Below are positions 3-5,715 of a stretch of 5,715 nt of DNA, piece after piece. The stretch is from Chloroflexota bacterium (GTDB taxonomy: Bacteria > Chloroflexota > Limnocylindria > Limnocylindrales > CSP1-4), in assembly GCA_021785115.1 (NCBI GenBank), contig JAJYGO010000479.1, forward strand, positions 1-5,715, written 5' to 3'. Below the pieces are notes generated by a model that saw nothing but the letters and a program-made list of their open reading frames with translations, had not been told where the DNA came from and ran no database searches. How positions within the stretch are numbered: the stretch's first letter is position 1; each line of letters opens with the position of its first letter. A program made the position numbers and the translations under genes.

Positions 3-1457
3 AGTCGCACCGCCGGGAGCACCCCGTGCTTCGTCAAGGCGAACCAGAGCGGTGGGACGACCCTGCCCCAAGCCAACTCGGGGTGGGCGAACGAGATCGA
101 TCTCGACCTGCAGGCAGCCTCCGCGATCTGCCCCCGGTGCAGCCTGCTGCTGCTGGAGGCCTCGTCGACCACCTTCTCCAACCTCGGGACGGCGGTGACG
201 ACGGCGTCGAACATCACGTCCACGTCCGACTCGGCGCATGTGGTCGCGATCAGCAACAGCTACGGCACCACGAGCGACGCCCCCGGAGCCCTCTACCCGG
301 CCTGGGACAACGCGGCCAGGAAGGGCCTCGCCGTGACGGCGTCGTCGGGTGACTGGGGCTACGCCACCTCGTTCCCGGCGTCGGCCACCAACGTCATCGG
401 GGTCGGGGGGACCACGCTCAGCGTCGATGGCTCCGGCGTGCGGTCGAACGAGACCGTCTGGTCGGGCGCAGGAAGCGGCTGCTCGACCTACAACGCCGCC
501 CCGTCCTGGCAGTTCAACGCTACCTGGAAGGCGAGCACGCTGGGGATCTCCAACCCGTGCGGCTCGAAGAAGGCCGTCGCCGATCTCTCGGCCGACGCCG
601 ATCCGTACTCCGGCCTCGAGGTCTACACGACGTACAGCGGGAAGACCGGCTGGATGATCTTCGGCGGGACGAGCCTGTCGTCCCCGCTCATCGCGGCGTT
701 GTACGCGATGCAGGGCGGCTACGGCGGGTCCACCCTCGCCGGCGCGTACGCGTGGACGTCGACGACCAGGTACTACGACGTCACGTCCGGTTCGAACGGC
801 ACGTGCAGCCCCTCGGTGCTGTGCACCGGCCAATCCGGCTGGGACGGGCCCTCCGGGCTCGGCAGCATCCTCGTGGAGACGGCGCCGCCCGAGCTCACCT
901 CGATCGCCGTCTCGCCGTCGAGCGCGACGGTCCTCACCGGCGGGACGCAGCGGTTCACGGCGGCCGGTGCTGACCAGTACGGCCAGCCCTACACGCTGAC
1001 CGGCGTCAGCTGGAGCGTCGACCCAGCCGCCGGCACGATCAACACCTCGGGCCTGTTCACGGCCGGCGCCACCTCGGGTGGCCCGTACACGGTCAGGGCC
1101 ACGTCGGGGAGCGTGAGCGGCACGGCCTACGTCACCGTGACCGCGCCGGTCCCCGCGAGCTTCACGCTCTCGGCCAGCCCGTCGTCGCGGACGATCAAGC
1201 CCGGCCGGTCCACGAGCTACACGATCTCGATCACGCGCTCGAGCGGGTTCACCGGCGAGGTGACCTTGACGATCGCTGTCAGTGACAGCCCGTCCGACGT
1301 CCTCGGCACGTTCTCGCCGAACCCCGCGACCGGCACGAGCGCGAAGCTGACCATCACGACGACCAGCCAGAGTCCGGGCGGCACGTACACCCTGACGATC
1401 ACCGGCACCAGCGGTGGCCTCAGCGCCACGACCACCGCCACGCTCACGCTGCGCTGA
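3..1457 (+). CDS. Secreted S53 sedolisin-type serine-carboxyl peptidase with two C-terminal Ig-like domains (5' end missing)
   Basis: The frame is open from the left edge, so the signal peptide, prodomain and first part of the catalytic domain lie outside; 484 residues are visible. Family S53 enzymes are extracellular acid-active endopeptidases that use Glu, Asp and Ser. Seen here: the E-x-x-x-D pair (Glu31, Asp35) in NEIDLDLQAAS, followed by CPRC; the oxyanion Asp117 in SSGDWG; and the nucleophile Ser224 in GGTSLSSP. A calcium-site-like stretch follows, from YYDVTSG to GWDGPSGLGS. All key residues are present, so the enzyme looks active. Residues ~297-383 form an Ig-like domain (GGTQRF, DQYGQP and SGLFTA patterns). 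Residues ~385-484 form a second beta-rich domain of the type found as stalk or binding modules on exported actinobacterial enzymes. There is no sorting signal or membrane helix at the C terminus, so a freely secreted protein is inferred. Arg codons are CGC, CGG and AGG, with no CGA seen, unlike the genes to the right. Confidence 0.9.
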   Translation, partial: SRTAGSTPCFVKANQSGGTTLPQANSGWANEIDLDLQAASAICPRCSLLLLEASSTTFSNLGTAVTTASNITSTSDSAHVVAISNSYGTTSDAPGALYPAWDNAARKGLAVTASSGDWGYATSFPASATNVIGVGGTTLSVDGSGVRSNETVWSGAGSGCSTYNAAPSWQFNATWKASTLGISNPCGSKKAVADLSADADPYSGLEVYTTYSGKTGWMIFGGTSLSSPLIAALYAMQGGYGGSTLAGAYAWTSTTRYYDVTSGSNGTCSPSVLCTGQSGWDGPSGLGSILVETAPPELTSIAVSPSSATVLTGGTQRFTAAGADQYGQPYTLTGVSWSVDPAAGTINTSGLFTAGATSGGPYTVRATSGSVSGTAYVTVTAPVPASFTLSASPSSRTIKPGRSTSYTISITRSSGFTGEVTLTIAVSDSPSDVLGTFSPNPATGTSAKLTITTTSQSPGGTYTLTITGTSGGLSATTTATLTLR

Positions 1458-1470
1458 CCGTCGGTCGCGC
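1451..1470 (+). terminator. Hairpin over the sedolisin stop codon, possible weak terminator
   Basis: GCGC-T-GACC pairs with GGTC-GCGC around a GTC loop. This gives eight GC-rich pairs with one bulged T, and the hairpin includes the TGA stop (1455-1457). No T-run follows, so this is not a classic intrinsic terminator. It could stall polymerase or protect the 3' end. Only the inverted repeat is seen directly; the function is inferred. Confidence 0.3.
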
Positions 1471-1494
1471 CAGGATCGCCGGGCTGACACGCAG

Positions 1495-1501
1495 AAGGAG
1501 G
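1495..1501 (+). promoter_or_regulatory. Strong Shine-Dalgarno AAGGAGG that decides the start of the next gene
   Basis: A near-perfect anti-16S match, AAGGAGG, lies 5 bases before an in-frame CTG (1507) and 8 bases before an in-frame ATC (1510). No ATG, GTG or TTG in the downstream open frame lies at a usable distance; the first in-frame GTG is at 1609 and the first ATG at 1624. The site implies a non-standard start codon for the small gene that follows. Confidence 0.65.
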
Positions 1502-1506
1502 CGAGT

Positions 1507-1920
1507 CTGATCGAGCAGGATCCGTGGGACGCGCTGCTGGCGGAGATCCGCGGCCAGTGCCGCGCCGTCGGCTGGTGGGCCGGCGAGGCGCGTCGGCTCC
1601 GCGACGCGGTGGGTGCCCGGCGGATGAGCCCCCCGGTGGCCGCTCGCATCGCCGAGCGGCTTGCGGGGGCCGGTTACGAGCTCGACGGGGAGATCCGGCT
1701 CGAGAGCGATGAGCCCATCGTGGTACCCGCCGGCGCCCGTGCCCTGGCGGCCAGCCTCGAGGCCGTGCTGGAGGACGTGCGCGCCTTCGACGCGGCGATC
1801 CCGCCGGGCCTGGCGTGGCGGGACGTGCTCATCGCGCGGGGTGCCGCCGGCCGGTACCTCGAACGGGCGCGGCATGCGCCCGTCGGCGGACCGCGGGGGA
1901 GGGAGCAGCGCGTTCCCTGA
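1507..1920 (+). CDS. Small hypothetical protein, probable CTG start
   Basis: I do not recognise this 137-residue protein. It looks genuinely coding: the composition is balanced, third positions are strongly G/C, and a strong AAGGAGG sits 5 bases upstream of CTG1507. The product is soluble and mostly helical, with no signal peptide or membrane segment. The N-terminal part (residues ~5-35) is amphipathic, with a Trp-rich patch (VGWWAGEARRL). The middle (residues ~40-65) is helical up to a short beta-like stretch around YELDGEIRLE. A second helical part follows, around ASLEAVLEDVRAF. The tail is rich in Arg and Gly. An ATG at 1414 in the same frame lies inside the sedolisin gene without a ribosome binding site and would add a basic, low-quality stretch, so it was not chosen. 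The gene follows the sedolisin by 49 bases and could share its transcript. Whether CTG or ATC is used, or a base is miscalled near 1506-1510, cannot be decided here. Confidence 0.6.
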   Translation: MIEQDPWDALLAEIRGQCRAVGWWAGEARRLRDAVGARRMSPPVAARIAERLAGAGYELDGEIRLESDEPIVVPAGARALAASLEAVLEDVRAFDAAIPPGLAWRDVLIARGAAGRYLERARHAPVGGPRGREQRVP

Positions 1921-1937
1921 ACGCGGAGATCGCCTCA

Positions 1938-1980
1938 CCGGTCGTGTCGCGCAAGCTGGCACGGTCCGGGTGGCGACCGG
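1938..1980 (+). other. Inverted repeat in the convergent gap, possible terminator
   Basis: CCGGTCG (1938-1944) pairs with CGACCGG (1974-1980) across a 29-base spacer. It lies between the small gene and the convergent helicase remnant. The long loop and the lack of a T-run make a terminator role weak. The rest of this 124-base gap shows no recognisable feature. Confidence 0.2.
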
Positions 1981-2044
1981 GGCGGCAGCGCGCCCGGCCA
2001 CGCGCCGCGGACCGGACGCGTAGCGGCCCCCGCCCGCCCCTCGC

Positions 2045-2404
2045 TCAGCGCAGCTGGGCCAGCAGCTCCCCCGTCCCGATGAGCACCACGTGGTGGCGCG
2101 CCCGGCTCGACCCCACGTAGAGGAGCTGGCGCAGGCGGGGGTCGTCGGCCCACAGCTCGACCAGGACGACGCACGGCCAGTCGAGGCCCTTGGCGCGGTG
2201 GATGGTGTCGCACAGGATGGTGTCGGAGGGCTGCGGTGCGACCGCCTCGGCGGCCAGCCCGAGCGGGTGCCCGGCATCGTCGACGTGCCCGTTCCAGAGC
2301 ACCTCGTCGCCGAGGGTGCGCCGCTGCCAGTCAGGAATCGACCTGGACCAGAAGATATGCTTCAGTGTGGTTCGATCGGCTCCACGGGCGCGGCGCACTG
2401 TCCG
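2045..2404 (-). pseudogene. Truncated SF1 (UvrD/Rep-like) DNA helicase, C-terminal remnant
   Basis: About 117 codons remain at the end of a superfamily 1 helicase of the UvrD C-terminal type. Full-length enzymes couple ATP hydrolysis to 3'-5' DNA unwinding and run to several hundred residues. Seen here: a motif V-like segment, DTIHRAKGLDWPCVVLVEL (residues 64-82 from the GTG at 2398), and a motif VI-like segment, LLYVGSSRARHHVVLIG (92-108), with Arg99 and Arg101 in the place of the motif VI arginines. Before them is a plausible bridging stretch from DWQRRTLGDEV to about residue 48. Walker A, Walker B and the rest of both RecA-like domains are absent. An in-frame TGA on the minus strand (2405-2407) ends the frame upstream, and the sequence beyond it is ssb-like on the other strand. 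No ATPase activity is possible from what remains. The surviving motifs look intact, suggesting recent truncation. A domain-only standalone gene is a less likely reading. Confidence 0.75.
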
Positions 2405-2461
2405 TCACGGGCCTGCACTTTGGCGCCGCTGGACGACCCCCCGGCGGAGCGGGGGTTGTCC

Positions 2462-2602
2462 ATGAACCAGGTGCTCCTGACAGGCCGTGTCACCCGGGAA
2501 CACGGCCTTCGCAGGACTCCGAGAGGCGAGTCGGTCGCGCAGTTCACGATCGCGACGCACGACCACCGGTCCGGGTCGGAGAAGGCGGAGTACCAGGGGG
2601 TT
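2462..2602 (+). pseudogene. ssb: Truncated single-stranded DNA-binding protein, N-terminal remnant
   Basis: The first ~47 codons match the start of a bacterial SSB OB fold: MNQVLLTGRVTRE, then LRRTPRGESVAQFTIATH (a strand-turn-strand typical of SSB), then SEKAEYQGV. SSB proteins coat single-stranded DNA during replication and repair, and have an OB fold of ~110 residues plus an acidic tail. After Val47 (about base 2602) the similarity ends abruptly and the sequence becomes the promoter region of the next gene. The frame nevertheless stays open into that gene. Upstream, CCCCC (2438-2442) can pair with GGGGG (2451-2455), leaving a GGAG (2446-2449) in the loop as the only ribosome-binding-site candidate, 12 bases from the ATG. 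The remaining half of the fold cannot bind DNA as a normal SSB. The assignment to the family is firm from the N-terminal pattern; the breakpoint is accurate to perhaps ten bases. Confidence 0.75.
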
Positions 2603-2633
2603 CGCCACCTTGCCCCGCCAGCGCCCTCTGATG

Positions 2634-2642
2634 TGGTATGGT
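2634..2642 (+). promoter_or_regulatory. Extended -10 promoter for the AbiEi-like/HigB cassette
   Basis: TGG-TATGGT reads as a TGn extension followed by a good -10 hexamer, and also fits the loose actinobacterial TAnnnT. A TTGCCC at 2610-2615 is 21 bases upstream, too far for a standard -35, so the extended -10 would have to carry recognition. Transcription would begin near 2649, inside the left arm of the inverted repeats, leaving a leader of about 38 bases. The position just past the ssb breakpoint suggests the promoter came with the cassette. Confidence 0.45.
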
Positions 2643-2698
2643 GTTCCACGAATTGGCCTTGTTCCGCAAGGAGTGGAACAGCGCACATGGCTGGAACA
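2642..2698 (+). repeat. Four-copy TGTTCC/GGAACA nested dyad, likely autoregulatory operator
   Basis: TGTTCC occurs at 2642-2647 and 2660-2665; its reverse complement GGAACA occurs at 2675-2680 and 2693-2698. Copies on each arm are exactly 18 bases apart, and both inverted pairs share one centre at 2670. TGTTCCAC (2642-2649) and GTGGAACA (2673-2680) also match as an 8-base inverted pair. The array overlaps the -10 element, the predicted transcript start, the ribosome binding site and codons 3-4 of the following gene. AbiEi-type antitoxins are known to repress their own promoters by binding inverted repeats, so an operator for the gene-1 product (or the XRE protein) is the natural inference. 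As RNA, the inner pair could fold with AAGGAG in its loop. Confidence 0.6.
2668..2673 (+). promoter_or_regulatory. Ribosome binding site AAGGAG of the AbiEi-like gene
   Basis: AAGGAG lies 13 bases before ATG2687, longer than usual. It sits exactly between the inner TGTTCC and GGAACA copies, so it would be in a hairpin loop in the transcript. No closer in-frame start codon exists. Confidence 0.5.
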
Positions 2699-3841
2699 GT
2701 GGAGGACCTTCTCGCGCCATCGAGCGAACGCGAGCTCCTCGGTTCGCTCGAGAAGCTACTAATCGACAGACTGCCAGATGGCTGGTCGATCGCTATCGAG
2801 CGCGAGCCCCGAGGCCAGACCCCGAGCGAATGGCGGCCCGATGCGTTCATTGCCGTCCAGGCCCCCAACAGGGCGCGAGCGCGTTTGGCCGTCGAAGCAC
2901 GCGCAAGCCTCTACCCGCGCGACACGTACGCGTTGTCGAGCGAGCTCGGCTCGCTGTGGCTGCGTCCGCCGGTCCCGAAGGGCCGAGTGGCAACCTTCCC
3001 AGGGGTCGATGGCGTGCTTGTACTGAGCCGCTTCCTAACGGCGAGGACTCGCACGATGCTGGACAAACTCGGGTTCTCGTACGCGGATGCCACCGGCAAC
3101 CTGCGCATCGCGACGCGCGTGCCGCCGATCTTCATCGAGCTCTGCGGAGCGGAATCGAACCCGTGGGCTGAGGATCGGCCGCTGCGATCGCTGCGAGGAC
3201 CGGCGTCCGCTCGAGTCGTCCGCGCTCTGCTGGACTTCAGGCCGCCATATCCGCTCCGTCTGCTGGCCGAGACGGCCGAATTGCCCCTCGGAAGTGCGTC
3301 GCGGGTCGTCGCCTTCCTCGTGAGCGAGGCGCTCGTCGAGCGAAGCGGACGCGGACCGATCGAGAGCGTCGACTGGAAGGCGCTCCTGCGGCGATGGACG
3401 CAGGACTACTCACTCCTGAAAACCAACAGATCGCGGTTCTTCCTCGAACCTCGGGGCCCGCGGGCCTTGGAGGCTCGCCTTCGAGAGTTGGATGCTCCGT
3501 ACGCCGCGACGGGGAGCCTTGCTGCAGCACGCCGAGCCGAGGCCGCCCCGGCGGCGCTCGCCGCCGTGTACGTGCCGAACATTGACAAGGCGGCGAGTCG
3601 CCTCGGGTTGCGCGACGCACCGAGCGGCGGCAACGCGGTGCTACTCGAGCCCCTCGCTGACGTTGTATTCGAGCGGACCTGGGATCAGGACGGCATCACG
3701 TACGCGGCCCTGCCACAGGTCGCCGCGGATCTGTTGACCAGCCCCGGCCGCGGCCCGGCGGAGGCCGAGGCGCTTGTCCAGTGGATGGAGGACAACCAGG
3801 ATGCCTGGCGGGTCTCCCTGCGCATGCGAGGCAAGACCTAA
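2687..3841 (+). CDS. AbiEi-like antitoxin/regulator with N-terminal PD-(D/E)XK-like region
   Basis: 384 residues, soluble. The C-terminal part resembles the AbiEi (type IV antitoxin) family as found in actinobacteria: AATGSLAA (273-280), VYVPN (294-298), LGLRDA (306-311), GGNAVLLEPLADVVFERT (314-331), YAALPQVAADLLTSPGR (339-355), EAEALVQWM (359-367). Residues ~173-237 look like a winged helix: ARVVRALLD, then LRLLAETAELPLGSASRVVAFL, then a VDWKALLRRW segment. The middle also has YADATGN (132-138) and ESNPW (156-160), conserved in the relatives I remember. The N terminus (~12-93) has Asp52 in WRPD and Glu70 in VEARAS, spaced like a PD-(D/E)XK fold but with Arg72 in place of Lys. AbiEi proteins counteract an AbiEii nucleotidyltransferase toxin and repress their own operon; no AbiEii is present here. 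The gene is instead translationally coupled (TAATG) to a HigB-like toxin. It uses CGA, CGT, AGG and AGA for Arg, unlike the left-hand genes. The family call is from memory of conserved patterns; the nuclease-like reading is tentative. Confidence 0.65.
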   Translation: MAGTVEDLLAPSSERELLGSLEKLLIDRLPDGWSIAIEREPRGQTPSEWRPDAFIAVQAPNRARARLAVEARASLYPRDTYALSSELGSLWLRPPVPKGRVATFPGVDGVLVLSRFLTARTRTMLDKLGFSYADATGNLRIATRVPPIFIELCGAESNPWAEDRPLRSLRGPASARVVRALLDFRPPYPLRLLAETAELPLGSASRVVAFLVSEALVERSGRGPIESVDWKALLRRWTQDYSLLKTNRSRFFLEPRGPRALEARLRELDAPYAATGSLAAARRAEAAPAALAAVYVPNIDKAASRLGLRDAPSGGNAVLLEPLADVVFERTWDQDGITYAALPQVAADLLTSPGRGPAEAEALVQWMEDNQDAWRVSLRMRGKT

Positions 3842-4230
3842 TGGCTTGGCCGGTCGTCTACTACCGAGCCTCGGACCGGTCCGAGCCGGTGAACGATGAG
3901 ATCGACCGCCTGCCACCCAGGGCACAAGTCGCCATCGACAACCAGATCGAGCGGCTCGGCCTCTTCGGTCCGAACCTCGGCTTCCCGTACACCAGCCAGA
4001 TCGAAGGTGAGCTCCGCGAACTGCGGTGTCACCTCGGCGATGACCTCTACCGGATCCTCTATCGGCGCTCGCGGAACCTGTTCGTGCTCCTGCACTTCAT
4101 CGAGAAGCGGACGGACAAGGTACCCGCCGAGGATATTCGAATCGCCCAAGCTCGCTGGGACGAGTTTGTCCGGCGGATGAACGAGCGTCCGCGTCGACCG
4201 CCACGTGCGGCAGGCCACGATGCTCCTTGA
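3841..4230 (+). CDS. RelE/HigB-family toxin (phage-derived Gp49-like)
   Basis: 129 residues, close to the usual ~100-130 of this family. Members are ribosome-dependent or free mRNA endonucleases that stop translation when the partner antitoxin is lost. Seen here: an N-terminal strand (WPVVYYRAS), a helical pair at 17-43 (DEIDRLPPRAQVAIDNQIER then LGLFGP), the diagnostic LRELR (58-62), YRILYRR (70-76), LLHFIEKRTDKVP (83-95) and DIRIAQARWDEF (98-109). These match the order strand, two helices, then four-stranded sheet with the FxKK-like element (here FIEKR) and a final helix. Basic residues Arg71, Arg75, Lys89 and Arg90 are candidates for RNA contact and catalysis, as in other RelE folds. The ATG overlaps the previous stop by one base, so translation is probably coupled to the AbiEi-like gene. 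The Arg/Pro-rich tail after residue 115 looks disordered. The partner is inferred to be the XRE gene 42 bases downstream; the toxin-first order is the HigBA arrangement. Confidence 0.8.
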   Translation: MAWPVVYYRASDRSEPVNDEIDRLPPRAQVAIDNQIERLGLFGPNLGFPYTSQIEGELRELRCHLGDDLYRILYRRSRNLFVLLHFIEKRTDKVPAEDIRIAQARWDEFVRRMNERPRRPPRAAGHDAP

Positions 4231-4254
4231 CGAACTTCTCAATAGTGGTAATCT
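4227..4254 (+). promoter_or_regulatory. Candidate internal promoter for the antitoxin gene
   Basis: TTGACG (4227-4232) matches five of six -35 bases and overlaps the toxin stop codon. TAATCT (4249-4254) fits the actinobacterial TAnnnT -10 and is preceded by TGG, an extended -10. The spacer is 16 bases. A start near 4261 would leave only about 12 untranslated bases before ATG4273. This would let the antitoxin be made independently of the toxin. Confidence 0.45.
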
Positions 4255-4272
4255 CACGCCGACACCTACCGC

Positions 4273-4635
4273 ATGAGAACAGCCACCGTGACAGCTAAGC
4301 AGGAGTGGGTAAGCCCCGTCGGCAGCACCAGTCGCACAGCGAGGCGACGTCGCGCGGGACGGAGTGCGGAGTATCGGGCCGAGCAAGAGCGACTGGCCCC
4401 GTACGAGGCATTGGCGAGGATGGTCATCGCTCGTCGGATCCGATATAGCCTGACCCAGGAGCAGCTGGCCGATCGGATGAGCACGAGTGTCTCGGCGATC
4501 AGCCGGCTCGAGAGTGGTCAGCACCGCCCGAACGTTGAGACCCTCGAGAAGTTGGGCCTGGCATTCGGGGAACGGTTCGTCTTCGGATTCGAGGATCAGG
4601 CCGGCGAGCGCGAGCTCGCGGGTGTCGGGCGCTGA
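4273..4635 (+). CDS. XRE-family HTH antitoxin, HigA-type
   Basis: 120 residues. A lambda-repressor-type helix-turn-helix spans ~48-104: LTQEQLADRM (60-69), STSVSAISRLESGQ (70-83, recognition helix) and RPNVETLEKLGLAF (85-98). HigA-like antitoxins bind the toxin and repress the operon. Before the domain is an unusually long basic, flexible arm (~1-40, Arg/Ala/Ser-rich), then a helix (RLAPYEALARMVIARR). This arm could be the toxin-binding or protease-sensitive part, but that is inference. ATG4273 has no clear Shine-Dalgarno; GTG4288 is an alternative start with none either, so leaderless-like or coupled initiation is possible. The gene follows the toxin by 42 bases and ends 38 bases before a convergent gene. 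Those 38 bases show no T-rich terminator. Confidence 0.8.
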   Translation: MRTATVTAKQEWVSPVGSTSRTARRRRAGRSAEYRAEQERLAPYEALARMVIARRIRYSLTQEQLADRMSTSVSAISRLESGQHRPNVETLEKLGLAFGERFVFGFEDQAGERELAGVGR

Positions 4636-4673
4636 TTCGTCCAGGTTTGCTGTCAGGCCGGGCTGCGCCAGAC

Positions 4674-5714
4674 TCAGCCGCGCTGCTCGCTGGCAGCCAG
4701 GAACGCGGCTGCGGCCGCCCTCACCGTGTATGCGATGTGGGCGGCCGCTACCCGGGATGCGCGCGCGTCTAGCTCGGTTTCGAATGCCTCACCAGAGCGG
4801 CGACTCTGCGCGAGGCCGAGCCACACCGCCCTCGGGACCAGCTCCCCGGGCTCCTCAAGCAATTCAGAAATGCGCGCCTGCCGCAGCTCGGGGGCGACGT
4901 CAACCGTGGCAGCCCCAAGGGCGTTCCCGGCAGCCGCTCGGACGAACGGGTCCGGGTCGTGGGACAGGCCAATCAGGACTGCCGCAAGGGTCGAAGAGTC
5001 CAGGCTCCCGCGAATAACGCCAAGGGACCGGATGGCCTGTAGGCGCGCCTCTTGACTCGGTGAGTGCGCGAGCCGCAGGAGATGGCTCAGGGCCACGCTC
5101 GTGCTGACGTCACCAAACACGGCTTCCAGCTGAAGATTCACTCCGAGGAGATCGGCCTGCGTGCCAAAGATTGGCATACCGATCTGAGCCGCGGGCAGGC
5201 CGGCGGCGAGCCGTCGCCGGTGCCTAGACGGGACCTCTCCTGGCTCGGCGATGAAAGGCACAACGGTCGCTATTCGTTCGTCGAGTGACACCTTGGGGTC
5301 CATCGCGAAATCAAGGGCTTCATCGAACAGGCCGCGACGCCGGCTAGTTAGCGCGAGCCGACCCAGGAGCCCGCCAACCCTGATGAGTCCCATCGTGTAC
5401 CGACCCGCGGACGCCTCACGCCGCATCGACTGAGCGAGATCAATGACCGCATTCTCGACAGCTTGCCGATCGTCGGAACGCAGCGAGCCACGACGCAGCA
5501 GCAGGGAGACGAGATACAGAGACCGCGTCTCGCGAAACGCGGCCAGGGCGACCCTTGAGATTGCGATGGGATGGAGCGACATCAACTCATGGGCGGCGGC
5601 CATCGCTGGGAACACGTGATCATCGCGCGCGCCGAGGTTGTCTTGTACATACCCAAGCCAAAGGCGGACTTCGGTCCGGCCGAGGCGTTCCCAATCGAGG
5701 CTGTGCAGCACCCG
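4674..5714 (-). CDS. HEAT-repeat protein, function unknown (5' end missing)
   Basis: 346 residues are visible and the frame runs off the right edge. A GTG near the edge (5709-5711) has no visible context, so the true start is probably outside. The protein is almost entirely helical. Clear HEAT-type repeats lie at ~206-235 (ALSHLLRLAHSPSQEARLQA, then IRSLGVI) and ~239-270 (AVLIGLSHDPDPFVRAAAGN, then ALGA), with a weaker one at ~287-305 (LVPRAVWLGLAQS). The DPDPFVRAAAGNALG pattern is the classic HEAT helix-turn-helix. The N-terminal half has amphipathic helices without obvious repeats. HEAT proteins are scaffolds for protein or nucleic-acid binding. No catalytic motif, signal peptide or membrane segment is visible. 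The gene converges on the toxin-antitoxin cassette. A role in the same defence module is possible but nothing in the sequence demonstrates it. Confidence 0.7.
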   Translation of the reverse strand, partial: RVLHSLDWERLGRTEVRLWLGYVQDNLGARDDHVFPAMAAAHELMSLHPIAISRVALAAFRETRSLYLVSLLLRRGSLRSDDRQAVENAVIDLAQSMRREASAGRYTMGLIRVGGLLGRLALTSRRRGLFDEALDFAMDPKVSLDERIATVVPFIAEPGEVPSRHRRRLAAGLPAAQIGMPIFGTQADLLGVNLQLEAVFGDVSTSVALSHLLRLAHSPSQEARLQAIRSLGVIRGSLDSSTLAAVLIGLSHDPDPFVRAAAGNALGAATVDVAPELRQARISELLEEPGELVPRAVWLGLAQSRRSGEAFETELDARASRVAAAHIAYTVRAAAAAFLAASEQRG

Positions 5715-5715
5715 C

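What the first reader, a model, noticed from the sequence alone, without database searches (positions are those of the whole stretch)
2687..4635. Three-gene module: AbiEi-like protein coupled to a HigB toxin and an XRE antitoxin
Seen: a 384-residue AbiEi-like gene whose stop overlaps the start of a RelE/HigB-like toxin (TAATG), followed 42 bases on by an XRE HTH gene. Known: AbiEi normally pairs with an AbiEii nucleotidyltransferase, and HigB with HigA alone. Inference: the AbiEi-like protein may have been recruited as a third component (second regulator, sensor or effector) of a type II system, giving a tripartite toxin-antitoxin or phage-defence unit. The breakpoint-rich surroundings and differing Arg codon use (CGA, CGT, AGG, AGA) suit an acquired cassette.
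Basis: partly seen in the sequence, partly recalled or inferred. Interest (0 to 1): 0.72.

Follow-up and report, generated by a model that had tools for sequence, protein, structure and literature searches.

The report
AbiEi-like regulator joined to HigBA pair
A bacterial gene that normally sits in front of one kind of toxin gene has here kept its likely control site but stands before a different, complete toxin and antitoxin pair, which suggests that toxins can be swapped under an existing regulator.

Summary
They are not a general three-part system. In 72 of the 80 best genome loci of the AbiEi-like family a nucleotidyltransferase (NTase) match lies next door; 3 loci end first. All 10 other close toxin loci carry XRE downstream, none an AbiEi-like gene in the flank fetched. 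The window is a hybrid: the NTase gene was replaced by HigBA at about 3811-3827, leaving the NTase start ATGCCTGGCG. The AbiEi promoter block survives with a 21-bp palindrome seen exactly at 30 of 79 family loci but once in 749 kb elsewhere. Best reading: the AbiEi-like protein is an autorepressor that now controls HigBA transcription, while HigA alone neutralises HigB (inferred). A second contig probably carries the same arrangement, yet its AbiEi gene is sister to an allele with the NTase-type tail, which hints at exchange. New variant of known toxin-antitoxin kinds.

The parts
2627..2686 (+). upstream block of the AbiEi-like gene, conserved with L002
   Evidence: blastn match to L002 runs from 2627 to 3810 at 82.8%
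2660..2680 (.). 21-bp palindrome TGTTCC-N9-GGAACA, putative AbiEi operator
   Evidence: exact TGTTnC-N9-GnAACA palindromes at 30 of 79 family loci (window's own L001 included), 1 in 749,425 bases outside; only site in the window
2687..3841 (+). AbiEi-like (COG4861/PF09952-type) gene, 384 aa: PD-(D/E)XK-like, winged-helix and NTase-like domains predicted
3801..3810 (+). remnant of the NTase gene start (ATGCCTGGCG)
   Evidence: identical to the NTase start in L002; homology to L002 ends at 3810
3811..3827 (+). junction between the AbiEi block and the HigBA block
   Evidence: L002 match ends at 3810; weak similarity, by eye, to DNA upstream of the toxin in L101/L102 from about 3828
3841..4230 (+). 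HigB/RelE-type toxin (Gp49 family), 129 aa, start overlaps AbiEi stop by 1 nt
   Evidence: PF05973 E 6.5e-19
4273..4635 (+). XRE antitoxin (HigA-like), 120 aa
   Evidence: PF01381 E 6.4e-12; downstream of the toxin in 10 of 10 other close loci

Best explanation
A hybrid toxin-antitoxin operon. An AbiE-type pair (AbiEi-like regulator plus NTase toxin) lost its NTase gene by recombination a few bases into the NTase start, and a type II HigB-HigA pair took its place, its toxin start overlapping the AbiEi stop. Shown by sequence: the junction, the absence of an NTase on the contig held, the kept palindrome and intact reading frames. Inferred: the AbiEi-like winged-helix protein still represses its promoter at 2660-2680, so higBA is transcribed at least partly by read-through from that promoter, with translational coupling into higB; HigA alone neutralises HigB, an mRNA-cleaving toxin by family; the AbiEi-like protein adds a layer of transcriptional control and is not itself the HigB antitoxin.
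For: NTase match next to the AbiEi-like gene in 72 of 80 genome loci, 3 more cut by contig ends, including the 87%-identical L002. Toxin-XRE without AbiEi at 10 of 10 other close loci; 19 shared contig lengths between the listed toxin and XRE relatives against 2.6 by a jitter test. NTase start remnant and sharp end of L002 homology. No NTase relative found in the G001 genome (without positive control). Palindrome at 30 of 79 loci against 1 in 749 kb, in three covarying forms, kept in the window and absent from the stretches held of the 10 other toxin loci. AbiEi-like gene intact, dN 0.071, dS 0.756 against L002, no lone change at columns invariant in the other 27 rows. AbiEi autorepression through inverted repeats is known (PMC3985639, PMC7319586, passages).
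Against: No expression or binding data. dN/dS may mostly reflect time before the swap. The scan found no sigma-70-like promoter or terminator in 2380-4760, so the transcript is not shown; HigBA could have an internal promoter. The palindrome was noticed before it was counted, and 49 of 79 loci lack the exact form. In L101 and L102 another open frame also runs up to the toxin start, so overlap with an upstream gene is not special to AbiEi. Only 1 of 80 loci has the arrangement. An empty search of G001 shows little.
Confidence: 0.6

Rival explanations
1. Chance wreckage: the AbiEi-like gene is an orphan left in a decaying toxin-antitoxin island, and HigBA landed behind it without any functional link.
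For: Flanks hold gene fragments (UvrD C-terminus 2045-2398, SSB N-terminus 2462-2635). L065 shows a graveyard: a Gp49 piece, a RelE-like frame, XRE, an AbiEi-like gene and an NTase fragment within about 3.5 kb. Four further AbiEi-like loci with room for it lack an adjacent NTase match (L021, L031, L055, L068). Only 1 of 80 loci has HigBA there.
Against: Intact ORFs, palindrome kept, no lone changes at invariant columns; a probable second contig with relatives of both genes (AbiEi 83-84%, toxin 88% identical), inferred from one shared contig length of 31,661.
Confidence: 0.26
2. True tripartite system: the AbiEi-like protein takes part in sensing or in neutralising HigB, as SecB-like chaperones do in TAC modules.
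For: Operon-like packing with TAATG overlap; an extra predicted PD-(D/E)XK-like domain could act as sensor; probable second instance.
Against: 10 of 10 other close toxin-XRE loci lack the AbiEi-like gene in the flank fetched; 72 of 80 AbiEi-like loci have an NTase match instead; known AbiEi and AbiEii were found not to interact (PMC3985639, passages).
Confidence: 0.1
3. Assembly chimera that joins an AbiEi contig to a HigBA contig.
For: The window and L001 may come from the same reads; metagenome data; the window's first 1005 bases are not on that contig.
Against: Junction inside a contiguous 4.7-kb stretch 99.96% identical in two records; P0006 and P0122 point to a second, divergent contig with a similar AbiEi tail.
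Confidence: 0.04

Closest known systems
AbiE type IV toxin-antitoxin systems, COG4861-COG4849 branch (including Rv0837c-Rv0836c)
   Same: AbiEi-like gene of the COG4861/PF09952 type (mapping in PMC7251935, passage; Rv pair in PMC3968373, passages; branch in PMC3985639, passages); winged-helix and NTase-like domains predicted; palindrome before the gene; in its family usually followed by an overlapping NTase gene.
   Different: The NTase toxin is missing and a HigB-HigA pair stands in its place; a predicted N-terminal PD-(D/E)XK-like domain precedes the winged helix, whereas the solved AbiEi and Rv2827c are two-domain proteins (PMC7319586, passages).
HigBA type II toxin-antitoxin systems
   Different: Sits behind a type IV-type regulator and that regulator's likely operator.
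TAC (HigBA plus SecB-like chaperone)
   Same: Three-gene unit around a HigBA pair (PMC3968373, passages).
   Different: The third gene is an upstream AbiEi-like protein, not a downstream chaperone, and the 10 close HigBA relatives examined do without it.
Partner swapping among type II systems (NetFlax, Panacea)
   Same: Modular exchange of toxins and antitoxins (PMC10440598, passages).
   Different: Here a whole toxin-antitoxin pair stands where the toxin of a type IV pair was, while the old regulator stays.

Membership tests
AbiE (type IV TA) | AbiEi-family regulator/antitoxin gene | tested here: met
   By homology (A1) and the NTase neighbours of its relatives, 72 of 80 loci; its own Pfam hit is below the cutoff
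AbiE (type IV TA) | AbiEii/DUF1814-type NTase toxin downstream | tested here: not met
   No NTase match in L001; only the first 10 bases of its gene remain
AbiE (type IV TA) | Winged helix plus NTase-like C-terminal domain | tested here: inconclusive
AbiE (type IV TA) | Autoregulation through inverted repeats in the promoter | not testable with these tools
   Palindrome present and enriched in the family; binding not measured
[quoted passage not shown]
   same order in 10 of 10 other close loci
HigBA (type II TA) | Toxin toxic alone and neutralised by HigA through binding | not testable with these tools
   Needs bench work
Conserved tripartite TA | The three genes recur together across genomes | tested here: not met
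   1 of 80 AbiEi-like loci and 1 of 11 close toxin loci (the window's own in both) have all three; one further probable contig by shared length

The most novel reading that the evidence does not exclude
The AbiEi-like gene with its palindrome is a reusable control cassette: through recombination within the shared AbiEi body it exchanges what lies behind it, NTase in one allele and HigBA in another, and so puts foreign toxin systems under an extra repressor, making hybrid type IV/type II units that may sense phage through the PD-(D/E)XK-like domain.
Probability: 0.25. Interest if true: 0.68.

Novelty: new variant of a known kind. Interest (0 to 1): 0.5.

Why it matters
It is a base-level case of a toxin swap across toxin-antitoxin types: the regulator and its likely site stay, and the toxin is replaced by a whole self-contained toxin-antitoxin pair. 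It gives a testable operator for a little-studied AbiEi branch (COG4861) and a way to ask whether a regulator of one toxin system can take control of another.

Tried and rejected
Tripartite system as a general kind: rejected by context counts. Phage or plasmid origin: pattern matches in viral contigs encoded no relative of the AbiEi-like protein or of the toxin; no AbiEi-like relative in phages; 17 plasmid records hold relatives under 60% identity, whose context I did not look at; no DNA match of 2600-4700 in plasmids. RNA families and tRNAs: none in the window. Promoter and terminator scan of 2380-4760: nothing. PADLOC and NCBIfam listed no family for the AbiEi-like protein; no solved structure matched it by sequence. 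A palindrome shared upstream of the toxins: none found common to the loci.

Single origin of the hybrid by the AbiEi gene tree: the clade window plus P0006 was rejected (AU p 0.0013 with, 0.0009 without the tail columns), but I named that pair after seeing the tree, so the p values are optimistic; the tails look shared (AWRVSLRMRGKT, AWRVSVPARGNA). I read this as exchange or two events and could not decide; the DNA of P0006 was not sought, as metagenome scans are capped at 0. A third candidate, contig length 2,764 shared by P0027, P0135 and P0253, was not counted: about 1.7 shared AbiEi-toxin lengths are expected by chance and P0027 has an NTase-type tail. Toxin tree: the window falls in no supported clade smaller than 38 rows; P0122 pairs with P0124, whose context is unknown.

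Full report
What is there. The window holds three same-strand genes as described: AbiEi-like 2687-3841, Gp49/RelE-type toxin 3841-4230 with its ATG sharing the last base of the AbiEi stop, and an XRE gene 4273-4635. The stretch 1006-5715 is 99.96% identical to a contig titled Chloroflexi bacterium DBS2-1.bin55 (L001).

What the AbiEi-like gene normally stands beside. It belongs to a large family (1299 proteins at E <= 0.001 among the 7997 candidates scored, 120 listed). One scan of genome contigs found 211 relatives, of which the best 80 were kept. In 72 of these 80 an NTase match lies on the same strand within -60 to +400 bases of the AbiEi stop; 3 contigs end within 300 bases; 5 lack it: L001 itself, L021 (another gene follows; a second AbiEi copy and an NTase lie about 3.8 kb on), L031, L055 and L068 (only a possible NTase start). 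A match is not always an intact gene: 41 full frames of 255-290 aa with the VGAQ/VGAH motif were collected, the rest being partial, broken or cut by contig ends; in L008 and L065 the match is partial. The L002 NTase matches NTP_transf_8 (2.3e-5) and AbiEii (3.1e-4), both just below Pfam cutoffs; L003 gave no Pfam family and L064 a weak one. The NTase consensus keeps a DAD motif. A separate search of the 177 genomes of the class gave 18 genomes with 19 places; leaving out the window's own, 6 of 18 places show an NTase match to the L002 query (L082, L083, L084, L086, L088, L099) and 12 do not, 11 of these 12 being partial or short matches of 25-36% identity. So the NTase link is clear for the closer family and not shown for remote relatives.

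What HigBA normally stands beside. In the same 177 genomes 13 had a toxin match, 7 of them close, the window's own included; in 400 of the phylum 9 at E <= 1e-20, own included. The 10 distinct close loci other than the window's (L101-L106, L113-L116; about 49-78% identical) all carry XRE downstream and none an AbiEi-like gene in the flank fetched, about 1.5 kb (upstream only 1.0 kb in L101 and 0.8 kb in L113). Six weaker loci were not counted: L107 and L110 also show XRE on the toxin's strand, L108 and L112 on the other strand, L109 and L111 none. Among the listed relatives, toxin and XRE share 19 contig lengths (2.6 expected by jitter), AbiEi and toxin 3 (1.7), AbiEi and XRE 3 (1.6).

The junction. 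Homology to L002 runs 2627-3810 and stops. The last ten bases, ATGCCTGGCG (3801-3810), are the NTase start of L002. Similarity to the DNA upstream of the toxin in L101 and L102 is weak and starts, by eye, at about 3828. The NTase was replaced, not just interrupted: no NTase match follows in L001, about 6 kb on. A search of the whole G001 genome found none either, but without a positive control.

The palindrome. Starting from TGTTCC...GGAACA in the window, I asked whether TGTTnC-N9-GnAACA with complementary n occurs near AbiEi starts. It does exactly in 30 of 79 loci, L001 included (n = C 11, G 10, T 9), against 1 in 749,425 bases outside; the window has one site, 2660-2680, ending 6 bases before the ATG; the stretches held of the 10 other toxin loci have none. 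Allowing two mismatches to TGTTCC/GGAACA, 37 of 79 loci match at spacing 9, at most 4 at any other spacing from 3 to 15, and 22 of 1580 random stretches match at spacing 9. The pattern was noticed before it was counted, so this is not a blind test, but the excess is very large. AbiEi of S. agalactiae and Rv2827c autorepress through inverted repeats (PMC3985639, PMC7319586; passages).

Second case. The protein lists share contig length 31,661 for an AbiEi-like protein (P0006, 83% over the alignment) and a toxin (P0122, 88%); a shared length of 20 kb or more is expected 0.002 times by jitter. This is inference from a length, not a contig that I read. Of 40 tails printed, 39 are complete; the window's own (P0035) and P0006 have the AWRVS type, the other 37 resemble the tail that in L002 runs into the NTase. 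P0006 is sister to P0003, which has the NTase-type tail, with 100/100 support, and a window-P0006 clade is rejected (pair named after the tree was seen). Exchange of the downstream part between alleles is the simplest account; two separate events are possible.

Selection. AbiEi-like dN 0.071, dS 0.756 against L002; toxin against L102 dN 0.135, dS 1.81; XRE 0.097, 2.34 (the latter dS are near saturation). The window shows no lone change at columns invariant in the other 27 rows of A1.

Literature. Listings seen: 15 of 58 papers, 12 of 59, 12 of 201, 6 of 6, 15 of 409, 6 of 6, 4 of 4. None describes an AbiEi-HigBA operon in its title or the start of its abstract. One, PMC11062541 (listing only), treats a type II and an AbiE system on one element. 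I read passages of seven papers and no whole paper; subscription journals are mostly not held, so this is no proof that the arrangement is unpublished.

Verdict. It is a rare hybrid in which a type IV-type regulator kept its likely operator and gained a type II pair. The regulatory role is inferred and easy to test. On checking I lowered the main confidence from 0.62 to 0.60 and raised the wreckage and chimera rivals by 0.01 each, as the NTase matches include broken genes and the second case rests on a contig length.

Noticed in passing
window 2660-2680 and 30 of 79 family loci: A 21-bp palindrome TGTTnC-N9-GnAACA marks the starts of this AbiEi-like family in three covarying forms; in a number of loci it lies at or within the likely first codons.
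   Followed up: yes
window 2045-2398 (-) and 2462-2635 (+): Fragments only of a UvrD-like helicase C-terminus and an SSB N-terminus lie just upstream of the operon.
   Followed up: partly
window 4674-5714 (-); L001 3668-5989 (-): A 773-aa frame with HEAT repeats is convergent with the operon.
   Followed up: no
L001 6687-7631 (-): A tyrosine recombinase (Phage_integrase, E 5e-29) lies about 3 kb beyond the operon.
   Followed up: partly
L065 4015-7655: A Gp49 piece, a RelE-like frame with XRE, an AbiEi-like gene and an NTase fragment lie together: a toxin-antitoxin graveyard.
   Followed up: partly
L101 722-1009 (+); L102 1217-1501 in reverse-complement coordinates: A similar open frame of about 95 codons with Cys/His residues runs up to the toxin start in both loci.
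   Followed up: partly
L021 from 3628: A 204-aa frame with an NTase-like stretch, read by eye, follows this AbiEi-like gene in place of the usual NTase.
   Followed up: no
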